This document shows, piece by piece, positions 25,941 through 42,347 of a DNA stretch of 55,066 bases. The DNA comes from Balneolaceae bacterium (GTDB lineage Bacteria; Bacteroidota; Rhodothermia; Balneolales; Balneolaceae): positions 1 to 55,066 of the forward strand of contig RECI01000216.1 of assembly GCA_007694095.1 (NCBI GenBank), written 5' to 3'. The notes under the pieces are model-generated. The model searched no databases. It was not told where the DNA came from and saw nothing but the letters and a program-made list of their open reading frames with translations. The translations under genes and the position numbers were made by a program. Each line of letters starts with the position of its first letter. The stretch's first letter is position 1.

Positions 25941-27410
25941 TCAAATAATTACTCCAAATACATAGCCTACCAGCAAGTAAAGAACCCCGGTAATCACCAA
26001 AACCATGGCAAGGTTAAAAACAAAGCCGGCTCTGGCCATTTGAGGAATGGTTACCAGCCCGCTTCCAAATACGATGGCATTGGGTGGAGTAGCGACCGGA
26101 AGCATAAATGCACAGCTCGCACCAATGGCAGCGGGAATCACAAGCAGTAATGGATCGTAGCCCATCGCAATAGCTACAGATGCAAGAATTGGCAGGAATG
26201 CCGCTGCTGTAGCTGTGTTACTGGTCACCTCGGTGAGGAAAATAATTACCAGTAGCGACAGCATCACAAGTAGAATAATAGGCAGGAAATCGAGTACCTG
26301 TAACGATTCGCCAATCCACTCAGCAAGGCCAGTGGATGTAATCGCGGCTGCAAGGCTCAGCCCCCCTCCAAAAAGTATAAGAACTTCCCATGGCAGTTGT
26401 TTTGCGTCTTCCCACGCAAGAACAAATTGCAATTTTTTGAAATTGACTGGCAACAAAAACATCAAAAGTGCACCAAAAATAGCAATTCCTGTATCTGAAA
26501 TATTTGGGATATAAGGTTCGAGAAGTGGCCTTGTAATCCAGAGTGTTGCAGTCATTACAAATACAACAGCAACCATTTTTTCCGGGCGAGACATTTTTCC
26601 GGATTTCTCAAGTTGATCTTTAATGAGGCCGTAACCACCCGGAATAATTTTTAGTTTAATAGGAAAAACCATACGGGTCAGCATTACATACACCAATGGA
26701 AGTGATACCACTACAAGAGGCAGGCCAACCATCATCCATTGCCCAAAACCGATATCTACACCGTATGTTTCGAGCATATAACCGGCCATCAGCGCATTTG
26801 GGGGTGTACCGATCAGTGTGGCTATACCACCGATATTGCACGCGTAAGCTAATCCAAGCAGCATCACTATAGCAAAATTGGTCTGAAGGTCAGCGCCCTC
26901 CATGTCTTCGGCTGTTTCAACAAGGCCAATAATTGACAGAGCTATCGGCAGCATCATCATGGCAGTAGCGGTATTGCTTACCCACATGCTGAGAAATCCT
27001 GCCGAAATCATAAAACCAATAATAATTGATTTTGGTTTTGTTCCTACAAGCATCACAATGTTAAGGGCGAGTCGTTTATGCAGGTTTGTACGCTCCATCG
27101 CCAATGCGATAATAAACCCCCCCATAAAGAGATAAATTAACGGGTTTGCAAAAGGCTGCGTAGCTGATGCGATTGAACCTACATCCATAACAGGGAAAAG
27201 TACAATCGGTAAGAGTGCCGTTGCAGGTATGGGAATAGCTTCGGTAACCCACCAGATTGCCATTAAAATTCCAACCGCTGCCACGTTCCAGGCAGCCGGC
27301 TCCAACGCCTCAGGCGTGGGTATTGCAATCATGATGGCAAAAATTAACGGGCCTAAAAAAAGCCCAATTCTTGGGCGTGAGAAATAGCCTCGCAATGATT
27401 CGTCTGACAT
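25941..27410 (-). CDS. SLC13/DASS-family sodium-coupled anion transporter
   Basis: 489-residue membrane protein with about twelve segments. The two SNT-type motifs of the divalent anion:Na+ symporters are clear: MWVSNTATAMMMLPI and EVTSNTATAAAFLPI. The signature FMLPVATPPNAIVFGSG is also present. Likely substrates are C4-dicarboxylates, citrate or sulfate. A GAGGGG sequence sits about ten bases before the ATG. It ends the long run of minus-strand genes but is about 200 bases from the next, so it probably has its own promoter. Confidence 0.92.
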   Translation of the reverse strand: MSDESLRGYFSRPRIGLFLGPLIFAIMIAIPTPEALEPAAWNVAAVGILMAIWWVTEAIPIPATALLPIVLFPVMDVGSIASATQPFANPLIYLFMGGFIIALAMERTNLHKRLALNIVMLVGTKPKSIIIGFMISAGFLSMWVSNTATAMMMLPIALSIIGLVETAEDMEGADLQTNFAIVMLLGLAYACNIGGIATLIGTPPNALMAGYMLETYGVDIGFGQWMMVGLPLVVVSLPLVYVMLTRMVFPIKLKIIPGGYGLIKDQLEKSGKMSRPEKMVAVVFVMTATLWITRPLLEPYIPNISDTGIAIFGALLMFLLPVNFKKLQFVLAWEDAKQLPWEVLILFGGGLSLAAAITSTGLAEWIGESLQVLDFLPIILLVMLSLLVIIFLTEVTSNTATAAAFLPILASVAIAMGYDPLLLVIPAAIGASCAFMLPVATPPNAIVFGSGLVTIPQMARAGFVFNLAMVLVITGVLYLLVGYVFGVII

Positions 27411-27616: not shown

Positions 27617-28660
27617 TCATTCTCCTTTTTTAACCCTCAAACTGAATACTCTTGCAGGATTTTTTACCAGCAGCTGTTCTATATCCTCATCCGATAAACC
27701 ACTGTCAATAAGCTCTGATATGAGATAGTCAAAAATATCGGTATAGCCGCGAAAATCCCCGCCATTCGGCTCACCAACATCATACCAGCCGGCATCATGC
27801 GAAATCAATACTTTGTCTAAATGTCCGGCGTCACGTAATGAAATAATCCGGTCAACGTACCAACCAATGCTCCCTTCCTGCCCTTCACCACGGGCCGGAT
27901 CGAACATAACGTTATCAAGTGAAATCCATGCACCTTTTCCCGCAAGCGTGATGTTTGCATCCAGTGAGCCGCTTTGTGCATGAGTCCAAACCCAGGCTGA
28001 CGGATCCACTCCCATCTGCCCAAGTAATTCAACCTGACCTCTGGCAGGCTCATCACCGATGGTATGTGAAAATATCGTCATACCGGTTTCGAGATGAGTG
28101 ATTGCTGCCGCTTCAACAATTTTTTGATGCAATGAAGAGAGTCCGGTGTGTTCGGCCACCGAAATTTTTAAAAATCCAGGACGCACTTCACTGCCATCGA
28201 TTCCTTCTTTAAACTCGAGAATCCACCGTTCCGCGATTTCCGCAGATGTTTCATCGTACGCATAAGCAGGCATAAACCTGTTGTCAACAGCTCCATAAAA
28301 TCCGGTATTTGTGAGAATATTGATCCCGGTTCGCCTGGAAAGCTCACTGAGTATATAAGGATCGCGACCAAGATATGCTGGTGTAAATTCTCCAATCGTA
28401 TCTACCCCGCGTCCGGCAACTTCAATAAAAAATGGCAGAACCCGCTCCAGAACCTCTGTACGGTCCCAGCGGTGATAGCCGGTACTGTCAGCACCTATCC
28501 AGTCTACAAGTACATGCTCATGAATAAGAGTAACGCCCAAATCGGAAGAAAAGATTGCGCCATTTACAGTCATTATACGTTCTTCCTGTTCAACATTGTT
28601 ACAAGACAAAAAGAATATCAAAACTAAAATGGAAGGCAGCAGTATTTTTTTCGATGGCAT
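27617..28660 (-). CDS. Phosphotriesterase-family lipoprotein
   Basis: 347 residues. The lipobox is FFLSC with Cys20. The PTE-like TIM barrel has HEH (His47, His49), LKISVAEH with Lys165 as the likely carbamylated lysine, SHT His199, WTHA His227 and ISHDAGW Asp289. All metal ligands of the family are therefore present. Members include lactonases and phosphotriesterases; the substrate is unknown. It would act in the periplasm or at the outer membrane and may be transcribed alone. Confidence 0.88.
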   Translation of the reverse strand: MPSKKILLPSILVLIFFLSCNNVEQEERIMTVNGAIFSSDLGVTLIHEHVLVDWIGADSTGYHRWDRTEVLERVLPFFIEVAGRGVDTIGEFTPAYLGRDPYILSELSRRTGINILTNTGFYGAVDNRFMPAYAYDETSAEIAERWILEFKEGIDGSEVRPGFLKISVAEHTGLSSLHQKIVEAAAITHLETGMTIFSHTIGDEPARGQVELLGQMGVDPSAWVWTHAQSGSLDANITLAGKGAWISLDNVMFDPARGEGQEGSIGWYVDRIISLRDAGHLDKVLISHDAGWYDVGEPNGGDFRGYTDIFDYLISELIDSGLSDEDIEQLLVKNPARVFSLRVKKGE

Positions 28661-30171: not shown

Positions 30172-33100
30172 TCAATCATGATTAATCAGCCCCCAGCTTT
30201 TATTTGGTTCAGGCCCCATTTCAAGAATAAGTTTCCCTCCTTTCAGCAATTCAGAAGCATCAAAATAAAATGTATTTAATTCTTTTCCATTAAGCGTTGC
30301 ATGTTGTACATACTTGTTTTTCCGTGATGTTCCGATTGCCTCTATCACAAATGTTTCTCCCCGGCCATATCTGCCGCCCAGGTCAATTTCCACCCGTTCA
30401 AATAACGGGCTGGCAATTTCATAGATTGGATTCACACGGGTGCCTCCGTCGGTTTGAAATAGTCCGAGGGCCGCCATTACAAACCAGGCACTCAACTGCC
30501 CCTGATCTTCATCACCCAGATAGGCATTTTCAACACCAAAACCGTAAAATCTGTCCATAACAGCGCGGCTCCATTTTTGGGTTAGCCACGGTTTACCTGC
30601 CCAGTTAAAAAGAAATGCAAAATGCATCGACTGCTGATTTCCCTGGTCCACTGCAATTTCCCAGTATTGATCGTTCAGGGCATTGAACCGTTGTGAATAG
30701 CTGGTTTCAAAGCCCCATTCCAGGTTTTCGATAAACCTGTCTTTGCCGATATATTCAATGAGAGCTGGTACATCCTGCGGAACAAAATGGGTGAGCTGCC
30801 ATGCATTCCCTTCAACATAGTGGTGATTTGCGCCGGATTCAAACGGGTCAAAATCTTCGAGCCAATTTCCATTGCTGTCTCGCATGTGAGCAAATCCGGT
30901 ATCTGAAATTGCATTTCTCCACCAGTATCCCCGGTCATTAAAGACTTCATAGACATCGTTATTTCCGAGTGCTTTTGCAAGCTGCCCAACAGTCCAGTCA
31001 TCAAATGAATATTCAAGGCTGTTTGAAAACCGGCCAAGATCATATGGAACATATTGATGTTCAAGATAGGCTTCCAGGTCTCTGTTTCCGGCAAAACCGT
31101 TATAAACTTTTTGCGCCGGTGTTGTCTGCATTTTCACAGCTGCTTCCAGGGCTTTTTCTGCGTCAAAATCCCGGATTCCCATTTGGTAAGCGCCTGTAAT
31201 TAGCGGGATTTCGTGCTCTGCAACCATCACCGGGATGAAGTTCATACCGGCCGGCCCTTTGGCGAGCCATCCGTAAGCATCGTACATGGCCAATTGTGAA
31301 TTGACCCAGCGGCTGCTCCATTCCGGTGTAATCAGATTCCACATCTGGTTGAGGTTCCAAAAGGTATTCCAGAATGCATCACACCCCAGTGCAACGTGAT
31401 CCGGATTCATCATCCTGTGAACGGTCCCGTCAGTTCCGCGCCACTCACCATTCACATCACTCCAGGTATTCCGGCTGCTTATGGACCTGTAAAAGGAATT
31501 ATAGAATCTCTTTTTTTCAAGGCGGTTATTTGTGCTGATGAGTACCCTGTCCATTAATTCGCTCCAGGTATCCACCTGGTTTTGCCTCACCGCATCAAAA
31601 TCCCAGCCAAATGGTCCGCTCATTTCCGTTTCCAGGTTCTCTGAGGCGTTTTCAATGCTCACCAGGCTAATTCCGGTACGCACTTGTACAACCGAATTCT
31701 TTTTATGATCAAAATAGACGAACAGTCCGGCATCTTTGATATCCTTGGCATAGAGGTGCTCGCCAACAAACAGTTCCTCCTCAACCCATCCGCCCATTGA
31801 ACGAATGGGCTGGTCGAACTCAATAACAAAGTGTACCGTGTAATCCTGATCTGCATCATGGCTCCAGACACCTCCCGAAAACTGATCCGAATAACCCTCG
31901 AGCCTGAAATCCGATACTTTTCTTACGTCAACTTCTTTCAGCACGTAATCATATTCAGCCGGAATATGCAAATCAACCAGCACGCGGGCACTGTCCCTCT
32001 CTTCGGGAAATGTGAATTTCATCAAACCGCTCCGGGTGGTTGCCGTCAGTTCGGCTGTAATGTCGTAATCTATCAGGTGTGCTTTATAATATCCAATGGG
32101 TGCCTTTTCGGTTGCTTTATCGATTCTTGAGCGATAGCCCGAATCGGGGTCTAACTCATCACCGATTTGGGTTTGAAGAGGCCCGTTAGTTGGAAATATA
32201 CCAAGGCCGGCCATCGTCCATTCGTGAATATGGCTGAAGGTTCCAATACTTTCAAAAATCGAATCATAACCGGCCATCCAACCGGCATTTTGGTTGACGG
32301 GACTCAGCTTTACCATACCGAATGGCATCCAAGGGCCAGGTGCATACATCCAACGAGCATGAGCGGCACCCATGAGTGTATCAACATAACCTGGCAGGTT
32401 TTTGATTTTTTGTGGTGAACGTTCAACCGTACCCGATTCAATAACCTTGTCATTAACCAGAATCCTATATTCACTCGTAACCGGTTCAGACACTGCCAGC
32501 ATGGGTGCTTCAAAATCATACCGCCCCATCTCCACGATTTCTTCAAAAACAGGTTCTCCATCCACCTCTATGCGTAAAACCGGTTCTCCTTCAAGATGTT
32601 CAACATTTATTAATAATGGCTGAACGCTGCCATGTTCTGTTATGAACTGATAATCTGCCGGGCGCGCTTCTCTTACAAAAAGATGCTCTGCCTGACTTAA
32701 CATTAACTCCGGGCCTTCAAGACGGATCTGGTCAAACTTAATCCATGATCCTTCCAAAACCGTGATCGTCACCCTGTTTCCGTTTTTTTGGATAACATTT
32801 TCTTCAACCGGAATTGCAAGAGTCACTGGGGTTGCATTGGCAGCAACCCCTTTTAATGCATCTTCATTTACAAATGGTTCCGTTCTTGAAGGCGAGCGTT
32901 GCGACCCCCTGTTATATCCCTCCGCCTCCAGTTCAATTCGCTGCTCCTGATCGTTAATGTAAACTTTTATCAGTGGCAAAAACTCTTTCGCATAATCTGC
33001 AAGTTCAATGTACAGGGTATATTCGCCTTTCTTTGGCTCTTCATTTACAGAAAACAGAATCGTTACCTGGTTACTGCGCCATCCTGAAGTTGACCAGGTG

Positions 33101-33399
33101 CCTCCCCATGTATCAACCGGACCCGGCAAAACATAGGGGATTTCTTCTTTTTCATCGTGAAAGCCAACCACAAAAAATTTATCCTCAAACCCGAAATCCT
33201 GATACTTGAAATCTTCAAAACCATCCGGCGCAAGTGCAAATTCATTAGCTGACTCATCTTTCTCCCCGATACTCCAAATAATTTTGATTTCATTTTCTAC
33301 AAGTATCTCAGAGATATTTCCATCACTATTTAAAGCGTATAAAAAAGAGGGTAAGAAAATCATAATACAGGGTAGCAGTACATGTGTGATGATTCTCAT
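30172..33399 (-). CDS. GH92 alpha-mannosidase with N-terminal carbohydrate-binding-like domain
   Basis: 1075-residue exported protein (signal peptide to about residue 22). Residues about 25-235 form a beta-rich module (IKIIWSIGEKDESANEFA, DNITGSW-like ends) resembling the C-terminal domain of family 4 polysaccharide lyases; this is inference. The GH92 part runs from about 335: YVDTLMGAAHARWMYAPGPWMPFGMVKLSP, FSHIHEWTMAGLG, the catalytic-acid segment HHYVEGNAWQLTHFVPQDV, and GDEDQGQLSAWFVMAALGLF with the base Asp. GH92 enzymes are calcium-dependent exo-alpha-mannosidases. Confidence 0.92.
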   Translation of the reverse strand: MRIITHVLLPCIMIFLPSFLYALNSDGNISEILVENEIKIIWSIGEKDESANEFALAPDGFEDFKYQDFGFEDKFFVVGFHDEKEEIPYVLPGPVDTWGGTWSTSGWRSNQVTILFSVNEEPKKGEYTLYIELADYAKEFLPLIKVYINDQEQRIELEAEGYNRGSQRSPSRTEPFVNEDALKGVAANATPVTLAIPVEENVIQKNGNRVTITVLEGSWIKFDQIRLEGPELMLSQAEHLFVREARPADYQFITEHGSVQPLLINVEHLEGEPVLRIEVDGEPVFEEIVEMGRYDFEAPMLAVSEPVTSEYRILVNDKVIESGTVERSPQKIKNLPGYVDTLMGAAHARWMYAPGPWMPFGMVKLSPVNQNAGWMAGYDSIFESIGTFSHIHEWTMAGLGIFPTNGPLQTQIGDELDPDSGYRSRIDKATEKAPIGYYKAHLIDYDITAELTATTRSGLMKFTFPEERDSARVLVDLHIPAEYDYVLKEVDVRKVSDFRLEGYSDQFSGGVWSHDADQDYTVHFVIEFDQPIRSMGGWVEEELFVGEHLYAKDIKDAGLFVYFDHKKNSVVQVRTGISLVSIENASENLETEMSGPFGWDFDAVRQNQVDTWSELMDRVLISTNNRLEKKRFYNSFYRSISSRNTWSDVNGEWRGTDGTVHRMMNPDHVALGCDAFWNTFWNLNQMWNLITPEWSSRWVNSQLAMYDAYGWLAKGPAGMNFIPVMVAEHEIPLITGAYQMGIRDFDAEKALEAAVKMQTTPAQKVYNGFAGNRDLEAYLEHQYVPYDLGRFSNSLEYSFDDWTVGQLAKALGNNDVYEVFNDRGYWWRNAISDTGFAHMRDSNGNWLEDFDPFESGANHHYVEGNAWQLTHFVPQDVPALIEYIGKDRFIENLEWGFETSYSQRFNALNDQYWEIAVDQGNQQSMHFAFLFNWAGKPWLTQKWSRAVMDRFYGFGVENAYLGDEDQGQLSAWFVMAALGLFQTDGGTRVNPIYEIASPLFERVEIDLGGRYGRGETFVIEAIGTSRKNKYVQHATLNGKELNTFYFDASELLKGGKLILEMGPEPNKSWGLINHD

Positions 33400-33589: not shown

Positions 33590-34873
33590 TTATTGGTTTT
33601 CAATCCAATCTTCGAACATCTCGATTGCTGTGAAAAGCACCCCGGCCGATCCCCGGAAAGTTCCTGAACCCATCGGCTCATTTGCGGGAGTGTACCACTC
33701 ATAAAAGCCGTTATTTTCAATGACACGTTCAAACATGGGCTTTACTTCTTCATATGCTTCTTCAATAAATCCATACCGGATCAGCTGCTGTATCATTCGC
33801 CCGCCAAACCAGGTCCAGTCGCCACCATTCTGATACCCGTATGGGTACATCCCCGGATTCAGGAAAAATCCTTCCGGGTATGGAGGGTAGAGTGTTAAAC
33901 CGATGGTAGCCGCATTTGCAGCCTCTACATTAGCACGCATGCGCTGCAGTGCTTCATAGACCTGGTCACGGGTAAGTAATCCGGCTTCGATGGCAACTGC
34001 AGTACCGCCATGCTGGTAAATTTCATCCTCATTAAAATCGTCAGGGAAAGGGGAACCATCGAGATAGCGGTGCGGTACAAACTGCCTGTTTTCCTCATCC
34101 CAGAGATGGGCCATGATGTTGGTGGAAATCAAATCATGAATTTCTCCCAGGTAATCGGCATGATCCGGCAGTAATTCCACAAGATTTTGCAAAGCAATGA
34201 GGAACATGGCATTATCATAAACTTCCACAGCGTAGTGGGTGTCTTCGGTTAAATATACACCCCATTCATGCTCTGGCTGCACATCACCCCAGTCAGCAGT
34301 AGTGGCTCCCCATAAGAGTCCGTATTCCTGGCTCATTCGCTCCTCCATGAGAAAATCGACAGCCAGCAGCAGCCTGTCGCCGATAGTCATCCCGTCGATT
34401 ACCTCATCCAGGAATGCAGTATCGCCCGATCTTTTCACATATTTATATACGGTTTGAATAAGGGATGATTCATGATCGGTTTCCACCGTATTTTTGTGCG
34501 CCATGAGATTGGGTTCGAGATCGGTATAGATATAGTCGTAACCGCCCGCTCCTTCAACATAAGGCCTGAATCCATCTACAATTCCTCCATCATCTGCCTG
34601 GAACCTAAAGAAGATGCGAAGGTTCTCTTTGATCACTTCATGGTCATGAACTTCCATTGCAGGCTCAATAAAGGTGTTATAATCACGAATCCATACTTCT
34701 GAATAGCTGTCACCGGCATTAAATCCGGTTGAGATGATATCGAGAGCTTTCTGTTTTACAACAGGAATATTCGGATCGTTCTGAATCCGGTCAGCCAGGC
34801 CGCTATTATCCTGATCGGCAGAACATGAAAGCAGTAAAATGAGCGGGAGTATGAGATATGTTAATCGGTTCAT
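33590..34873 (-). CDS. (alpha/alpha)6-type glycosidase-like lipoprotein
   Basis: 427 residues with lipobox LLLSC (Cys17). The protein has the periodic helical look of six-hairpin glycosidases: SEVWIRDYNTFIEPA (about 58-72), TDHESSLIQTVYKYVKRSGDTAFL, LLWGATTADWGD, ITL-like GLTLYPPYPEGFFLNPGMYPYGYQNGGDWTWFGGRMIQQL and ANEPMGSGTFRGSAGV. The acidic residues in WIRD and near NGGDW are candidate catalysts. I cannot assign the GH family with confidence (GH63-like and amylo-glucosidase-like are options). It lies between two GH92 genes, so an action on mannose-rich glycans is likely. Confidence 0.75.
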   Translation of the reverse strand: MNRLTYLILPLILLLSCSADQDNSGLADRIQNDPNIPVVKQKALDIISTGFNAGDSYSEVWIRDYNTFIEPAMEVHDHEVIKENLRIFFRFQADDGGIVDGFRPYVEGAGGYDYIYTDLEPNLMAHKNTVETDHESSLIQTVYKYVKRSGDTAFLDEVIDGMTIGDRLLLAVDFLMEERMSQEYGLLWGATTADWGDVQPEHEWGVYLTEDTHYAVEVYDNAMFLIALQNLVELLPDHADYLGEIHDLISTNIMAHLWDEENRQFVPHRYLDGSPFPDDFNEDEIYQHGGTAVAIEAGLLTRDQVYEALQRMRANVEAANAATIGLTLYPPYPEGFFLNPGMYPYGYQNGGDWTWFGGRMIQQLIRYGFIEEAYEEVKPMFERVIENNGFYEWYTPANEPMGSGTFRGSAGVLFTAIEMFEDWIENQ

Positions 34874-34899: not shown

Positions 34900-37290
34900 T
34901 TAATGGCGGACCCCAAATCGTGCCGGTTCGTCAGAACTCGTAAAATGCAGGTGCCCTCCGTTGATAAATGTTTGCCAGGGAAAATGAAACGAATTCATTG
35001 CTTGCCCATTGAGGCGCGCCGATTCGATGAAATAATGATCTGTGGGGTCACCATCAACAGAAATGACAAACTCTTTTCCGGGATAGTGATCCGGATGAAG
35101 CCGGATGGTTATGCGATCAAACATGGGCAGTGCTACCTGCAGTGTTGGTTCCAAACTGCTGCCACCGGCCACGTCGAACAGGCCCATTCCTGCAAGAACA
35201 AACCATGCACCAAGCTGGCCCTGGTCTTCATCCTGGCCGTAACCATAGCCGTGTACCGGATCTGTCCCATAAAAACCATTACTGATACGGCGCACCCAGT
35301 TTTGTGTAAGCCATGGCTTTCCGGCATAATTAAACAGCCAGGATATATGCAGGCTGGGCTGGTTTCCATGATTATAAACCCCGCCAACACCGGCAAATGC
35401 GTCTATTGTTTCACCGCCTGAAAAACCATCTTTTTCGGCACGTTCAAAGAGGCTGTTCAGACGTTCACTGAACACATCTTCTCCTATCACAGAAACCAAA
35501 CCTTCGGGATCATGAGGCACATAGAATGTGTACTGGTATGCGTTTCCCTCCTGGAAGCCGCGCCACGGCTCGGATGGATCAAAATCATCAAGAAAATTCC
35601 CGTCAAGATCCCGTGGCCGGATAAACCCCGTCTCATCATCATAGAGCAGTTTCCACCCTTCAGATAATTCCATAAACCGTGCATAATGATCTGTTTTCCC
35701 AAGCTGTTTAGCCATTTGCGCGGCTGCATAAGCGCTGAAACTGTATTCAAGGGTATGAGAAGCAGAAAACCGGGATGCCCTTGCGGAGCTGCTTGAATAG
35801 TGTTCATCATCAAATTCGTAAGGAACATACCCTTTTTCGATGAACTCTTTTGTATCGGCCTTTCCGGCTCCAAGGGGCCTGTTCATCCAGCCCATTTCGT
35901 TTTTATAAACTGCATCCCATGCAGTTTCAGGATCAATCCCCTTAATCCCCCTGTTCCAGGCCGATGCGATAAATTGTCCTGTAAAATTGGTTCCTACGCC
36001 GGAAACATATTTTGAAGTGGCAATTCCATCCGAAAGCCAGCCACTGTCTTTAAATACGTCGAGCTGGGTATTGATAAATTCACTCAGATAATCGGGATAG
36101 GCCATCGCCCAAAGAGTGCCCAGGTTCCAGAAAGCACCCCAAACTGCATCTGTATTGTAGTGATTATACTTCAGTTTCCCATCCTCATCAAAAGGTATTT
36201 GACCAGTTAAACTGTTATTCATCCTGTAGGCTCCATTTACATCATTTGCCAGCCCGCGGCCCAGTATGGCGTGATACAGCCCGGTATAGAACTTGATCCT
36301 GTTTTCAACAGAACCTCCTTCAACGGCAATCCGTCCAAGCATTTCCTCCCATTTTTGTTCTGCCAGATGGCGGGCTTTGTCAAAATCCAGCCCAGCAGCT
36401 TCAGTTTCAAGGTTCAACCGGGCATTTTCAATACTGGTATAGGAGAGTCCAACTTTTACAGTAACCGACTCATTTTCCTCCGTATCAAAGGTGAGGTACA
36501 TTCCGGCACCTTTCCCTTGAACGGATGAAACTCCGGGCCTCTGATCATCACCGATAAACGTGCCGTAGTGGCTGGCGTTCTTGTCCCATCTTGCAACGAA
36601 ATACATACTCACAGTACCGCCCGGCTGATAATGCCTCACGTATGCCGGCAGGGTAACCACAAACCCTTCAATTTCATTTTCCGACACTTTATGCACAAAG
36701 GCATCCGCCACCTCACCGCTCTCACCCTGTCTGTTCCCCACATCGATCATGATGTGTGACTGATGGGATGCCGGGAAGGTGTAACGATGAAAGGCTACCC
36801 GGGGAGTCGAAGTAAGTTCTGCAGTTACATCATAATCATCCAGATGAACGCTGTAGTATCCCGGGATTGCTGTTTCAGTCTCTTTTGAAAAGCGTGAACG
36901 GTATCCAAGATCGGGCTCCTCCAGAAGACCGGCTGTAGTAATAAGCTCGCCCGTTGTTGCCATCAGCGATATACCGCCAATCTGGAATTCATGAAAATTC
37001 ACAAAGCCTTCGATAGATTCATGCCTCGGATCATAGCCAACTGCTTCCCAGCCCCATCTGTTTCCGTACTGGCCATTTGTTGAAGGTGCAGGTTTTGCCA
37101 TCCCGAACGGCTGGGCTGCCGGCGTATAAAAAAACCAGCGTGAATGTGCCGACCCTATGTTTGGATCTACATATTGATTAAAACTGCCAGTTTGGGCAAT
37201 AACTGAATCCATCGCTCCCAAGAAGAGAGTCAGGACTGCTGCAATCAGGCATTTTTTTATCATTACTATTTCAGTCTTTGGGTTTTTCAT
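34900..37290 (-). CDS. GH92 alpha-mannosidase
   Basis: About 796 residues with signal peptide (MIKKCLIAAVLTLFLGAMDSVIAQ). GH92 landmarks are YVDPNIGSAHSRWFFYTPAAQPFGMAKPAP, FVNFHEFQIGGISLM, the catalytic-acid segment RGFQEGNAYQYTFYVPHDP and DEDQGQLGAWFVLAGMGLFDVAGG. The open frame extends upstream to 37665, but that part lies inside the transporter gene and looks non-coding. The ATG at 37290 overlaps the transporter stop (ATGA); a Met at 37263 is the alternative. It acts outside the cytoplasm to trim alpha-linked mannose. Confidence 0.93.
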   Translation of the reverse strand: MKNPKTEIVMIKKCLIAAVLTLFLGAMDSVIAQTGSFNQYVDPNIGSAHSRWFFYTPAAQPFGMAKPAPSTNGQYGNRWGWEAVGYDPRHESIEGFVNFHEFQIGGISLMATTGELITTAGLLEEPDLGYRSRFSKETETAIPGYYSVHLDDYDVTAELTSTPRVAFHRYTFPASHQSHIMIDVGNRQGESGEVADAFVHKVSENEIEGFVVTLPAYVRHYQPGGTVSMYFVARWDKNASHYGTFIGDDQRPGVSSVQGKGAGMYLTFDTEENESVTVKVGLSYTSIENARLNLETEAAGLDFDKARHLAEQKWEEMLGRIAVEGGSVENRIKFYTGLYHAILGRGLANDVNGAYRMNNSLTGQIPFDEDGKLKYNHYNTDAVWGAFWNLGTLWAMAYPDYLSEFINTQLDVFKDSGWLSDGIATSKYVSGVGTNFTGQFIASAWNRGIKGIDPETAWDAVYKNEMGWMNRPLGAGKADTKEFIEKGYVPYEFDDEHYSSSSARASRFSASHTLEYSFSAYAAAQMAKQLGKTDHYARFMELSEGWKLLYDDETGFIRPRDLDGNFLDDFDPSEPWRGFQEGNAYQYTFYVPHDPEGLVSVIGEDVFSERLNSLFERAEKDGFSGGETIDAFAGVGGVYNHGNQPSLHISWLFNYAGKPWLTQNWVRRISNGFYGTDPVHGYGYGQDEDQGQLGAWFVLAGMGLFDVAGGSSLEPTLQVALPMFDRITIRLHPDHYPGKEFVISVDGDPTDHYFIESARLNGQAMNSFHFPWQTFINGGHLHFTSSDEPARFGVRH

Positions 37291-38681
37291 TTCGATTTCT
37301 CTGTAATCCACATTTTTTGAATTTCTTCGAGTGATTTCCCTTTTGTTTCGGGTACCACTTTGTAAATAAACAGAAATGCAACCGCGCAAAATATCGCAAA
37401 GAACCAGAAAGTAAATGCTGCCCCGCCTGCTGCTAATAATATCGGGGTGATTTGTCCTACGATCGTATCTGCGATCCACATCGCCATGATACTGAGTGCG
37501 AGGGCGCGTCCCCGGATTCTGTTCGGGAAAATTTCGGATGCAATAACAAATTTGAGCGGGCCAATGGAAAAAGCGAAAAATCCCAGAAAGGCAATCACGC
37601 TTACCAGGAGAAAAACACTTCCTGTGGCGCCGGTATAGAAAAAATATCCGGTTGAAACGAGGCAAATCATGGCACCGGCCGTTCCAATAAGGTATAGCGG
37701 CCGACGCCCCAGGCTGTCAACTTTCCATACAGCGATAAAGGTAAAAATCATGTTGGCAAATCCAAGCAACACCTGGCTGTGCATGGCACTGCTCAGCTCC
37801 ACTCCCGCTTCATTTAATATTCGGGGGCCATAATAGATAATGGCATTGATTCCGCTGAACTGCGAAAACACCGGCAGTAAAATCCCAATGATAAGGGCAA
37901 CACGGAGGCCCGGCTTTAACAGTTCCCTGTAGGAGCCCTGTACTTCCAAAAGGGTCTCCCTGATTTCCGATAAACTTTTTTTAGCATCAATTTTGCCAAT
38001 GCATTTATTCAATACAGATTCTGCTTCACTATGCCTGTTTTGCTGCATAAGCCAGCGGGGGCTTTCGGGAATAATGAACAAACCGGCCAAAAAGATCAGT
38101 GCCGGCAGGGCCTCTATTCCAAACATTGCCCTCCATGTTTCATCGATAAGAATGAATCTGAAGAAACCTTCCGTCAAAAAGCCAGAAGCAGTTTCTGAAA
38201 GGTTCAGCAGCCAGGCGTTGGAAATATACGCAACCAGAATTCCTATGGTCACAGCAAGCTGATAGCATGTAACCAGCCTTCCCCGGATATGTGCCGGGGC
38301 AATCTCTGATATATATAGCGGTACTACGTTGGATGCAATCCCCACTGCCATACCGCCAAGCAGCCGTGCGGTAACCAGAAGCGCGAACCCCGGAGCAACC
38401 GCTGTTCCGATTGCCGAGAGTAAAAACAGTGCTGCTGATGCAATCAAAGCCGGTTTTCTCCCGGTTCGGTCGCTCATTTCTCCAGAAACTATCACCCCTA
38501 AAACACAGCCAATCAATGCCGAAGATACAAACCACCCCTCCTGCACAGCGGTAAGGCCGAACTGGGCCTGCACAAATGTAATAGCTCCTGAGATTACGGC
38601 CATATCAAACCCAAACAGAAATCCGCCTGCTGCGGCAATCAGGGTAATCATGGTCAGATACAGGGGTTTTCCTTTTTTCAT
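37287..38681 (-). CDS. MFS sugar porter
   Basis: 464 residues with twelve membrane segments. Sugar-porter family motifs are GFDMAVISGAITFVQ, SDRTGRKPALI, ISEIAPAHIRGRLV, IPESPRWLM, GINAIIYYGPRILNEAG, DSLGRRPLYLIG and the terminal VPETKGKSLEEIQ. These transporters bring in monosaccharides with protons. It begins four bases after the ROK-PMI stop and overlaps the GH92 start, so it is in the same operon and probably imports mannose. Confidence 0.94.
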   Translation of the reverse strand: MKKGKPLYLTMITLIAAAGGFLFGFDMAVISGAITFVQAQFGLTAVQEGWFVSSALIGCVLGVIVSGEMSDRTGRKPALIASAALFLLSAIGTAVAPGFALLVTARLLGGMAVGIASNVVPLYISEIAPAHIRGRLVTCYQLAVTIGILVAYISNAWLLNLSETASGFLTEGFFRFILIDETWRAMFGIEALPALIFLAGLFIIPESPRWLMQQNRHSEAESVLNKCIGKIDAKKSLSEIRETLLEVQGSYRELLKPGLRVALIIGILLPVFSQFSGINAIIYYGPRILNEAGVELSSAMHSQVLLGFANMIFTFIAVWKVDSLGRRPLYLIGTAGAMICLVSTGYFFYTGATGSVFLLVSVIAFLGFFAFSIGPLKFVIASEIFPNRIRGRALALSIMAMWIADTIVGQITPILLAAGGAAFTFWFFAIFCAVAFLFIYKVVPETKGKSLEEIQKMWITEKSK

Positions 38682-38685
38682 GGCT

Positions 38686-41349
38686 CTATTTCATAAATGC
38701 TTTCACGATTCCAGCCTTGCTGCCTTTTTCATTTACAATCTCATATTCCCCGGTTGCAGCAGGAATAATCATGGTTTCTGCGTAGTGAAGTTCTGCTATC
38801 CTGCCTGCTGCAATAATCTTAACTGCTGAACCCTCAACAAGATTTAAAACGTGAAACTTGCCATGTGTGCTCACCTTCATCGCCCTGGATATTTCAAGCC
38901 TCTGTACTCCATACAGATGCTTTTTATGGGTAGGAAGATGAACAACCCGCCCATTCGGCCCGTCTGAAATCACCTGCGGTTCACTGATCAGTTCATCGGA
39001 AACCAATTTTCCGGCCCGGGAAAAGTCGAGATTTTCCATTGCCCTGTCAATATTGATGGGGCGCGGCTTTCCATCAAGATCCACCCGCTGCCAGTCATAC
39101 ATTTTGAAGGTGTAAATATAGGGTGTATTGCTGATTTCCAGTACCACATTGTCTTTCCCTGAACAATGGATGGTACCGGCCGGAATGAGAAAAAGATCGT
39201 GTTTCGATGCCGGAAACGACTGAACATAACGATCTGCAGCAAAAGGTGTACCGGTTTTCTGCGCGAGATTCAATCCGGCTTCAAATTCACCGGGTTTGAT
39301 ATCTTCATGAAACCCAAGATAAACCCTGGCACCTGGTTTTGCCTCAAGTATGTAGTAGGTTTCATCCTGTGTAATCATTTCACCAAAATGATTTTGGATG
39401 TATTCTGGCTGCGGATGACACTGAAGCGAGAGATTTCCGCCATCCATTGTGTCGAGATAATCGAACCGCAATGGAAAATACGTTCCATAGGTCCCGGCAT
39501 CTTCCCCGAGTATGGATCGGTTGGAATGATACATCAGCCACTCAAACCCGATTTCCAGCATCGTGCCTTCACTTTCAAAAATCACACCGTTTTCGGGTGC
39601 AATCAATTCGAACGACCAGGCAAAATTTTCAGCCTCCGGATTCAGGCCTTCAAACGTTTGCTGCATCCATTTTCCGCCCCATACCCCGGGCTCAAACCAG
39701 GGCCTGACCCTGAAAGGTGACCCTGCCATTTTTTCGAGTCCTTCCCTGAAAACATCTCCCCTCATCCAGGCAATGTCACCATCGCGCTGGCCATCTGCTA
39801 TGGCACACAATTCAGGCAACAATTGCTGCTTATGTCGATTACAAACGTGCCAGTCGACATAGTAGAACCGTTTGTACATCGTTTTTGGATCTTCAGGCAC
39901 TTGTTTGCCGATATTACAAACACTACCTGCCCTCGACCGGTACTGAATCTCATTTTTTGGGATATCAATATAAATGACAGGGAGATCCTTCCCTACAAGA
40001 GATGCACCGGTACCATACAGAATCGATCTTTTTTCAGAAGATTGTTTCAGCAGATTGAGTTTATCCTGATCAAAAAAATCGGTCAATTCTCCATCATACA
40101 GCCTGCCAAATACGGGATCATCCCCTCCAAGATAGTCTTCAACTTTATTGTCAATTTGTTCTTCGGAAAGCAAGGCTGAGTTCACATCAACATACAAATA
40201 CCCGGTATTGTTAATATTTAAAACAGCAGAAAGATCAGCGATCACTGAATTCCAATCAGTACCGATATATCCGTCAAGAATGATAGTGCGGGACTCCTGT
40301 TCTGAAATGAATTCAGCCAGGGAATCAAAGCCACGGTTGATTGCACCATCCTCGAGTGGAAATGCCGGGTAGATATCATATCCATTCGTTTGAACAGGCT
40401 TTAATGGTGGCAGAACTGGGGATGCAGATTTTCTTTTCACAGCTTTTACTCTGCCTTCCTGTTCATCTGTTCTATGATGAACCACTGCCCCCCTTGCAGC
40501 AAGCCCTGATGTGTCATCCATCCACTTAATAACGGGTTTACTGATCAAATGACGGGTAAATGAAGGGGCAAATAATGGATGTGATTTTGCAATATTGCCG
40601 CCAATGATCAGGAAGTCGGGCTGTAGGTAAGTTGTAAGCTGATTCATATAGCCGGCAAGATTTTTCCCAAACTGTTGAAATAATTCCTGAATCATAGGGT
40701 TATTGTCTGCCATTCCGGCAAGCTCTTTTACCCCTTCTATATTGGTATTGATCACTCCATCACCATGGAGGAACTGCCTTAAAAACCACCTGGTCGATAA
40801 ATATTCCTCTGCAGTTGAGTCCAGGTATGGATCATTGTAGAGATATCCTTTTCCGGGAAAACCCGGGAGCACTATTCCATCCCATAAACTTGCGCTTCCG
40901 AACCCGGTACCCAGTGTCAGGGCTGTAGTGTTTTGCCCGCTGAGTCCCTCACTTTCAGCAGCTCCAAGTAAAAAAGCCTCCGCATCATTCATAAAAGTAA
41001 TCTGACCGGGTTCCAGGGCAAAATCACTCAATACATCAGTCATCGCTATCCGAAGATTCACTCCAAAGAGTGCTTCATATTTGTCGACTCCATGAATTTG
41101 GCAGATTCCTGACTTATAATTAAAAGGACCCGGTATGGAAAAGCCTATCCCTTTAATCTGACCGGACGGAACATCTTTTGACACTTTTGAGATTGAGGCT
41201 TTAAACTGGTGTATAATATCAAAGGCGCCTGCTGAACTGTCAATGTCAGAATAGTGACAGGCTACCATTTCAGTGTTTTCCTTGCAATCACTAAACAATG
41301 CTGCATAAACATGACTCCCCCCTACATCCAGCCCCACAAAATATCGCAT
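38686..41349 (-). CDS. ROK sugar kinase fused to class I mannose-6-phosphate isomerase
   Basis: 887-residue fusion. Residues 1-295 are a ROK kinase: FVGLDVGGSHV (phosphate loop), FMNDAEAFLLGAA with catalytic Asp122, TLGTGFGSA and FLIIGGNIA. The usual ROK zinc motif (CxCGxxGC) is absent. After a linker (295-320), residues 320-540 match the N-terminal part of long Bacteroidota-type PMIs (YDIYPAFPLEDGAINRGF; IILDGYIGTDW). Residues 550-887 form the cupin isomerase, with NLSLQCHPQ (Gln643, His645) and IPAGTIHCSG (His728) as metal ligands. Predicted to turn mannose into fructose-6-phosphate via mannose-6-phosphate in the cytosol. Confidence 0.88.
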   Translation of the reverse strand: MRYFVGLDVGGSHVYAALFSDCKENTEMVACHYSDIDSSAGAFDIIHQFKASISKVSKDVPSGQIKGIGFSIPGPFNYKSGICQIHGVDKYEALFGVNLRIAMTDVLSDFALEPGQITFMNDAEAFLLGAAESEGLSGQNTTALTLGTGFGSASLWDGIVLPGFPGKGYLYNDPYLDSTAEEYLSTRWFLRQFLHGDGVINTNIEGVKELAGMADNNPMIQELFQQFGKNLAGYMNQLTTYLQPDFLIIGGNIAKSHPLFAPSFTRHLISKPVIKWMDDTSGLAARGAVVHHRTDEQEGRVKAVKRKSASPVLPPLKPVQTNGYDIYPAFPLEDGAINRGFDSLAEFISEQESRTIILDGYIGTDWNSVIADLSAVLNINNTGYLYVDVNSALLSEEQIDNKVEDYLGGDDPVFGRLYDGELTDFFDQDKLNLLKQSSEKRSILYGTGASLVGKDLPVIYIDIPKNEIQYRSRAGSVCNIGKQVPEDPKTMYKRFYYVDWHVCNRHKQQLLPELCAIADGQRDGDIAWMRGDVFREGLEKMAGSPFRVRPWFEPGVWGGKWMQQTFEGLNPEAENFAWSFELIAPENGVIFESEGTMLEIGFEWLMYHSNRSILGEDAGTYGTYFPLRFDYLDTMDGGNLSLQCHPQPEYIQNHFGEMITQDETYYILEAKPGARVYLGFHEDIKPGEFEAGLNLAQKTGTPFAADRYVQSFPASKHDLFLIPAGTIHCSGKDNVVLEISNTPYIYTFKMYDWQRVDLDGKPRPINIDRAMENLDFSRAGKLVSDELISEPQVISDGPNGRVVHLPTHKKHLYGVQRLEISRAMKVSTHGKFHVLNLVEGSAVKIIAAGRIAELHYAETMIIPAATGEYEIVNEKGSKAGIVKAFMK

Positions 41350-41367: not shown

Positions 41368-41377
41368 TGTTTAAACA
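41368..41377. promoter_or_regulatory. Candidate HutC-type GntR operator
   Basis: TGTTTAAACA is a perfect 10-bp palindrome containing GTTTAAAC, which fits the GTnTAnAC pattern bound by HutC-type GntR regulators. It is 18 bases upstream of the fusion gene start, where a repressor could block the operon. Confidence 0.5.
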
Positions 41378-41480
41378 TATTATAGGAAATTGTGATTAAT
41401 TCAGCAATTTTTACTGTTTATTTATGGATGATGAAATTTTGTGATGAAAAGAAGAACAGAAAAAAATTTCCAGCTAATTC

Positions 41481-41606: not shown

Positions 41607-42347
41607 CTATTCCCCTGCCGAACTTTTCCTTTCAAAACGGATGGAGTATCTGAACTTATCACTTCGATAGTACCCAAGATTGTACTCTATGGGTCGGTCG
41701 CCGGCATCGAGTACAACTCTTTTTCTAAACAGGATAGGTTTGTTTTCTTCGATCTGTAAATAGCCGGAAATCGGTTCTTTCGCTTCTATGGCATCAAGTT
41801 CTTCTTCTGAACATGCCGGCTTTACTGAGTATTTATTTTCAAGAATAGTATAAAGGGGCTTACTGAAATCTTCATTTTCGGTGATCCCGATCCTGGGATG
41901 GAACCAGGAGATAAAAAATACAAAGGGGTTTTTTTCATCACCGTGAAGCCTTTCTAATTTCAACAGCTTATGACGCTGATCTGTCTTCAGTTTTTTATAA
42001 ACCTCAGCCGGCGCATTTACCATTTCAGTATGGGAAAAATAGTTTTTCAGCTTGATGCCTTTATCCAGCATCTCATTTCTGAAACTATGCCACTCCGCCA
42101 GATGTGTGGTGATCGTTTTATTCACCACAATGGTACCTTTGCCTCTTGTTCTTTTGAGCAAACCGTCATTTACAAGTTTGGAAATTCCCTGCCGTACCGT
42201 ATTTCTTGATACCCCCAGGATATTTGCCAGGTGTTCTTCCCTTGGTAAATAACTTCCATCGTCATATTTACCGCTCTCGATATTGCTCCTCAGTATGCTT
42301 TCGATCTGAATGTAAAGCGGAATACCCGAATTATGATCTACTTTCAT
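41607..42347 (-). CDS. GntR-family regulator, HutC/UTRA type
   Basis: 246 residues. The N-terminal winged HTH reads IPLYIQIESILRSNIESGKYDDGSYLPREEHLANILGVSRNTVRQGISKLVNDGLLKRTRGKGTIV (about 9-74). The C-terminal UTRA effector domain follows, ending in the usual IEYNLGYYRSDKFRYSIRF. UTRA domains sense small metabolites, often sugar phosphates. It precedes the mannose operon on the same strand with a 257-base gap holding a HutC-like palindrome, so it is the likely operon regulator. Confidence 0.9.
   Translation of the reverse strand: MKVDHNSGIPLYIQIESILRSNIESGKYDDGSYLPREEHLANILGVSRNTVRQGISKLVNDGLLKRTRGKGTIVVNKTITTHLAEWHSFRNEMLDKGIKLKNYFSHTEMVNAPAEVYKKLKTDQRHKLLKLERLHGDEKNPFVFFISWFHPRIGITENEDFSKPLYTILENKYSVKPACSEEELDAIEAKEPISGYLQIEENKPILFRKRVVLDAGDRPIEYNLGYYRSDKFRYSIRFERKSSAGE

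What the first reader, a model, noticed from the sequence alone, without database searches (positions are those of the whole stretch)
38686..41349. Three-part ROK kinase / PMI fusion that appears to channel mannose to fructose-6-phosphate
A ROK kinase (residues 1-295) lacking the family's CxCGxxGC zinc motif is joined by a linker to a full long-form class I mannose-6-phosphate isomerase (residues 320-887). Both catalytic sites look intact (Asp122; Gln643, His645, His728). With two mannosidases and a sugar importer in the same operon, one polypeptide could carry out both cytosolic steps. The PMI's own N-terminal domain (320-540) has no assigned function.
Basis: partly seen in the sequence, partly recalled or inferred. 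Interest (0 to 1): 0.6.

Follow-up and report, generated by a model that had tools for sequence, protein, structure and literature searches.

The report
Natural mannose-kinase/phosphomannose-isomerase fusion enzyme
One long bacterial protein joins a sugar kinase and a mannose-phosphate isomerase, with a third, dead-looking kinase fold between them, so it probably turns imported mannose into fructose-6-phosphate in two consecutive steps; the fusion recurs across Bacteroidota and Balneolota, and I found no published study of it.

Summary
One uninterrupted 887-codon gene (38686-41349, minus strand) joins a ROK-type kinase to a class I phosphomannose isomerase. It is not an isolated oddity: I found 17 complete single-ORF copies in Balneolaceae, Flavobacteriaceae, Chitinophagaceae and Rhodocytophagaceae. 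Unfused versions exist too: a ROK gene directly upstream of the PMI gene (10 loci) or in the same locus (4 loci). Neighbours are mostly alpha-mannosidases (GH92 or GH38), a sugar porter and a GntR regulator. This supports mannose to Man6P to Fru6P, inferred and not assayed.

Three corrections. (1) The ROK half lacks the zinc motif and also the sugar-binding ExGH motif; it belongs to a zinc-free subclass that also exists unfused. (2) The 'linker' is largely the conserved N-terminal arm of the PMI. (3) The unassigned 320-540 region folds like pantothenate, nicotinamide-riboside and uridine kinases, but Walker A is absent from all 78 relatives. It looks like a conserved pseudokinase domain belonging to the long-form PMI. 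The architecture is therefore kinase - pseudokinase - isomerase.

'Channelling' is untested. The two activities are ordinary. The natural fusion, the zinc/ExGH-less ROK subclass and the pseudokinase domain are the new parts.

The parts
38686..41349 (-). fused ROK kinase / pseudokinase domain / class I PMI gene, 887 aa
   Evidence: open frame and translation; 17 complete fused copies
40465..41349 (-). zinc-free ROK sugar-kinase domain, residues 1-295
   Evidence: PF00480 36.4 bits; profile search hits ManNAc kinases and beta-glucoside kinase; Foldseek to 5nck/6q27/4htl
40984..40986 (-). catalytic Asp122 codon
   Evidence: ND motif invariant in 15 relatives
40390..40464 (-). junction, residues 296-320; its second part (R-x-T/S-x-Q-x-L-x-P-like) is the N-terminal arm of the PMI
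   Evidence: the same motif begins unfused PMI proteins among L013-L029
39730..40389 (-). P-loop-kinase-like domain without Walker A, residues 321-540
   Evidence: AlphaFold2 pLDDT 90; Foldseek to pantothenate kinase E 2.7e-5; VIA-align Z 12.9; Walker A absent in 78/78
40249..40275 (-). degenerate P-loop position DGYIGTDWN (residues 359-367); GK[ST] replaced
38689..39729 (-). class I PMI catalytic unit, residues 541-887; metal ligands Gln643, His645, Glu663, His728
   Evidence: 1qwr E 6e-13; Foldseek E 3e-23
37287..38681 (-). sugar-porter MFS transporter, 4 bp after the fused gene
   Evidence: PF00083 E 8e-120
34900..37290 (-). GH92 alpha-mannosidase; start at 37290 overlaps the transporter stop codon
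   Evidence: PF07971 E 3e-125; start position
33590..34873 (-). (alpha/alpha)6-type glycosidase-like lipoprotein, family unassigned
   Evidence: only weak PF17167; relatives near the PMI in 23 of 38 loci
30172..33399 (-). second GH92 alpha-mannosidase with N-terminal CBM-like domain
   Evidence: PF07971 E 2e-128
41607..42347 (-). GntR/UTRA regulator directly upstream
   Evidence: PF00392, PF07702; GntR near PMI in 30 of 38 loci
41368..41378 (-). candidate operator ATGTTTAAACA, 18 nt before the start codon
   Evidence: similar site before L052, L053, L055 and L057 orthologues; only exact copy in the window, though not above chance with 1 mismatch

Best explanation
A bifunctional cytosolic enzyme of an alpha-mannoside utilisation operon. 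GH92 enzymes release mannose outside the cytoplasm (inferred) and the MFS porter imports it (inferred). The N-terminal zinc-free ROK domain phosphorylates mannose at C6 with ATP (inferred from motifs and context), and the C-terminal class I PMI domain isomerises Man6P to Fru6P (metal site shown in sequence, activity inferred). The central Walker-A-less P-loop kinase fold (shown by structure prediction) is part of the long-form PMI in every relative. It most likely acts as a ligand-binding or structural pseudokinase, not a third catalyst.
For: Single open frame. Domain matches by profile and fold. Catalytic residues conserved. 17 complete fused copies in several families. Equivalent partners when unfused: ROK gene adjacent to PMI in 10 loci, zinc-free ROK in the same locus in 4. 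Context: GH92 in 30/38, GntR in 30/38 and MFS in 27/38 loci with long flanks; where GH92 is absent, a GH38 alpha-mannosidase lies nearby in L008, L010, L012, L017 and L027. Purifying selection on all domains. A GntR-controlled mannose-to-Fru6P regulon with alpha-mannosidases (ManR, BT2103) was predicted in Bacteroides thetaiotaomicron (PMC3878776).
Against: The ROK half has lost two of the four ROK signature motifs, including residues that usually hold the sugar (against PMC5458393), so its substrate cannot be read from sequence and it could be weak or inactive. It diverges faster than the PMI half (roughly 30-37% against 40-50% identity). No assay exists. Many long PMIs have no ROK gene within 10 kb, so a dedicated linked partner is not obligatory.
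Confidence: 0.75

Rival explanations
1. The ROK domain is a sugar sensor or an inactive regulatory domain that controls the PMI; mannose is phosphorylated by another kinase.
For: The ROK family includes non-catalytic repressors; ExGH and the zinc loop are lost; five other ROK genes exist in the genome.
Against: DxGG, PGP, ND (Asp122), GTG and GG motifs are invariant or nearly so in 15 relatives; omega 0.15-0.30; canonical zinc-bearing ROK kinases fill the same slot beside the long PMI in 10 other loci.
Confidence: 0.12
2. The kinase is active but its main substrate is another hexose (glucose, fructose, ManNAc or an unusual epimer), and the PMI supplies or drains a different pool.
For: Nearest solved structures by profile are a beta-glucoside kinase and ManNAc kinases; the loss of ExGH makes the substrate unpredictable.
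Confidence: 0.11
3. The two halves are made separately, by an internal start or by cleavage.
For: In-frame GTG at codon 304 with a purine-rich stretch upstream in this gene.
Against: No conserved internal start: position and codon vary and L012 has none; homologues in many genera keep one frame.
Confidence: 0.04
4. The central domain retains its own catalytic activity, for example nucleotide or sugar phosphorylation by a non-Walker mechanism.
For: Many polar residues are invariant or nearly so (K, R, N, D), it is well conserved, and LID-like arginines (PKNEIQYRSRAG) are kept.
Against: Walker A is absent in all 78 domains and GK[ST] never stands at the P-loop position.
Confidence: 0.08

Closest known systems
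E. coli Mak-PMI synthetic fusion, built for Komagataeibacter xylinus and earlier for Ralstonia eutropha (PMC13274416)
   Same: mannokinase joined to phosphomannose isomerase in one polypeptide to drive mannose to Fru6P
   Different: man-made from E. coli parts, no central pseudokinase domain; here a natural fusion shared by several bacterial families
ManR (BT2103, GntR) mannose regulon of Bacteroides thetaiotaomicron (PMC3878776)
   Same: GntR regulator, mannose uptake, conversion to Fru6P and alpha-mannosidases in one regulon
   Different: the paper's main text does not mention a fusion, and I did not compare the genes directly; it is a prediction too
Zinc-free ROK ManNAc kinases (Fusobacterium nucleatum 5nck, PMC5458393; S. 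aureus 6q26/6q27)
   Same: ROK fold, catalytic Asp, no cysteine zinc motif; among the top profile and fold matches
   Different: F. nucleatum NanK keeps ExGH with its histidine; the window subclass has lost it, and is fused to PMI
Class I phosphomannose isomerase, B. subtilis 1qwr
   Same: fold and metal-site region
   Different: about 320 aa, no N-terminal extension; low identity, window protein below Pfam detection
Pantothenate / nicotinamide-riboside / uridine kinases (2zs7, 2qsy, 1uej)
   Same: fold of residues 321-540
   Different: Walker A lysine and Ser/Thr absent; about 12-14% identity

Membership tests
ROK kinases | Pfam PF00480 above gathering score | tested here: met
   36.4 against 22.9 bits
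ROK kinases | N-terminal DxGxT nucleotide motif | tested here: inconclusive
   DVGGSH at 8-13: a DxGGS variant, Ser for Thr, nearly invariant in the subclass
ROK kinases | catalytic aspartate | tested here: met
   Asp122 invariant
ROK kinases | ExGH sugar-binding motif | tested here: not met
   position reads KGYLYND; the zinc-bearing ROKs of split operons end in GGH there
ROK kinases | CxCGxxGC zinc motif | tested here: not met
   absent in all fused copies, present in all 10 adjacent-gene ROKs; zinc-free ROKs are known (PMC5458393), so I call it a divergent zinc-free ROK homologue, not a canonical ROK
Class I phosphomannose isomerase | metal ligands Gln/His/Glu/His | tested here: met
   Gln643, His645, Glu663, His728
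Class I phosphomannose isomerase | fold | tested here: met
   1qwr E 3.2e-23, TM 0.85 of target
Class I phosphomannose isomerase | Pfam PMI models at curated cut-off | tested here: not met
   PF20511 no match; PF21621 18.2 against 27 bits: too divergent for these models; the assignment rests on fold, sequence match to 1qwr and residues
Class I phosphomannose isomerase | Man6P/Fru6P interconversion | not testable with these tools
   needs assay
P-loop kinases (uridine/pantothenate kinase group) | fold of residues 321-540 | tested here: met
   Foldseek E 2.7e-5, VIA-align Z 12.9 over 181 residues, rmsd 3.7
P-loop kinases (uridine/pantothenate kinase group) | Walker A GxxxxGK[ST] | tested here: not met
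   0 of 78 domains: related fold, not an active member

The most novel reading that the evidence does not exclude
The Walker-A-less kinase fold is a dedicated allosteric or docking domain that couples a mannose kinase to the isomerase (in trans when unfused, in cis when fused), making a kinase-pseudokinase-isomerase assembly in which metabolite or nucleotide binding gates the flux of mannose into glycolysis.
Probability: 0.2. Interest if true: 0.65.

Novelty: new variant of a known kind. Interest (0 to 1): 0.45.

Why it matters
If true, nature already made the mannokinase-PMI fusion that engineers have built by hand to improve mannose use. The recurrent fused, adjacent and separate states give a ready comparative set to test whether fusion changes flux. 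The ROK subclass that lost both zinc and ExGH raises a direct question about how such kinases hold sugar. The pseudokinase domain gives a structural hypothesis for the roughly 220-residue N-terminal part of long-form Bacteroidota PMIs.

Tried and rejected
Frameshift or assembly artefact: rejected, 17 complete copies in many genomes. Short PMI match within Pfam: not found. Sequence-only identification of 320-540: no convincing Pfam or PDB sequence match; only fold comparison worked. Single origin of the fusion: the tree needs at least 5 changes (L032 is contig-cut and its 'unfused' label is unsure, and L003 was labelled fused although its contig starts inside the gene, so the count may be about 4). 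The tree cannot tell gain from loss. Search for a type II PMI domain (PF01050) gave only small cupin ORFs. Literature searches for a natural ROK-PMI fusion or for the PMI N-terminal domain found none; the library is open-access only. Promoter and terminator scans were at chance. pTM 0.89 for the full model suggests ordered domain packing, but inter-domain error was not available, so no claim on active-site distance is made.

Full report
What is there. The minus-strand frame 38686-41349 is a single 887-codon ORF starting with ATG. Residues 1-295 match Pfam ROK (PF00480, 36.4 bits against a cut-off of 22.9). Residues 541-887 match the B. subtilis phosphomannose isomerase 1qwr by sequence (E 6e-13) and by predicted fold (E 3e-23, TM 0.85 over the target). 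Pfam's own PMI models miss it or fall below cut-off, so this is a divergent class I PMI.

The ROK half. Alignment with zinc-bearing ROKs shows more: a stretch of about 11 residues carrying CxCG is deleted, and the GGH (ExGH-type) segment is replaced by KGYLYND. F. nucleatum ManNAc kinase, a known zinc-free ROK, keeps that histidine (PMC5458393), so the window ROK belongs to a different zinc-free subclass. That subclass occurs fused (all fused copies) and unfused (L018, L019, L025, L027, L088, L089). The catalytic Asp and the nucleotide, PGP, GTG and GG motifs are invariant or nearly so in 15 members. The acidic residue that follows the zinc motif in canonical ROKs is kept as E or D in nearly all members.

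The middle domain. Residues 315-548 were predicted alone with 35 sequences (mean pLDDT 90, pTM 0.86). Foldseek against the PDB gives pantothenate kinases, nicotinamide riboside kinase, uridine-cytidine kinase and a putative fructose-transport kinase (best E 2.7e-5). VIA-align gives Z 12.9, rmsd 3.7 over 181 residues for pantothenate kinase and Z 11.4 for nicotinamide riboside kinase. The P-loop position reads DGYxGVxW in the consensus, and no Walker A motif occurs in any of 78 domains. Several K, R, D, N and G positions are invariant or nearly so. It is thus a conserved pseudokinase-like domain.

Fused and split relatives. Of the loci fetched from genome collections, 17 (window included) carry complete fused ORFs, in Balneolaceae, Flavobacteriaceae, Chitinophagaceae and Rhodocytophagaceae. 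Ten loci have a zinc-bearing ROK gene directly next to the long PMI; four have a zinc-free ROK gene in the same locus; others have the PMI alone. In a sample of 394 genomes of the phylum, 28 hold a long PMI and 5 of these are fused, one of them broken by contig ends. In the window's family, 5 of 92 genomes have a complete fusion and two more look contig-broken, so the gene is sporadic. A maximum-likelihood tree of the shared PMI part needs about 5 changes between fused and unfused: fusion, fission or transfer happened repeatedly. Internal start codons near the junction are not conserved.

Context. Downstream in this window lie an MFS sugar porter, a GH92 mannosidase whose start overlaps the porter's stop, an unassigned (alpha/alpha)6-type protein and a second GH92; upstream is a GntR regulator. 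This genome has three GH92 genes and two are here. Among 38 loci with long flanks, 30 have GH92, 30 GntR and 27 MFS. GH38 alpha-mannosidases stand in where GH92 is missing in L008, L010, L012, L017 and L027. A GntR-regulated mannose regulon with alpha-mannosidases was predicted in B. thetaiotaomicron (PMC3878776). Every domain is under purifying selection (omega about 0.09-0.30 where estimable).

How it works. Best reading: mannose enters through the MFS porter, is phosphorylated by the ROK domain and isomerised by the PMI domain. Shown: fusion, folds, catalytic residues, selection, context. Inferred: substrate, both activities, release of mannose outside the cytoplasm. Not shown: channelling, and any role of the pseudokinase domain.

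Novelty. Both enzyme activities and the pathway are known, and engineers have fused E. coli Mak and PMI deliberately (PMC13274416). I found no report of the natural fusion, of this zinc/ExGH-less ROK subclass, or of the PMI pseudokinase domain in the open-access library, which does not prove absence. I rate it a new variant of a known kind.

Noticed in passing
window 33590-34873 (-): 427-aa secreted (alpha/alpha)6-type protein with only weak GH94-superfamily similarity; relatives sit near the PMI in 23 of 38 loci, so it may be an unclassified mannan-active glycosidase.
   Followed up: partly
window 41368-41378 (-): Palindromic TGTTTAAACA just before the fused gene; similar sites precede orthologues in L052, L053, L055 and L057, a candidate GntR operator.
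   Followed up: partly
L058, L059, L077-L087: Second, deep clade of long-form PMI (about 37-41% identity), several members in operons with canonical zinc-bearing ROK genes and sugar-porter genes.
   Followed up: partly
L051 9872-11711: Long PMI (and the following MFS gene) appear broken by frameshifts in Chitinophaga sp. E66: pseudogene or sequencing error.
   Followed up: no
window 27617-28660 and 25941-27410 (-): Phosphotriesterase-family protein next to a DASS anion symporter, just beyond the mannose operon.
   Followed up: no
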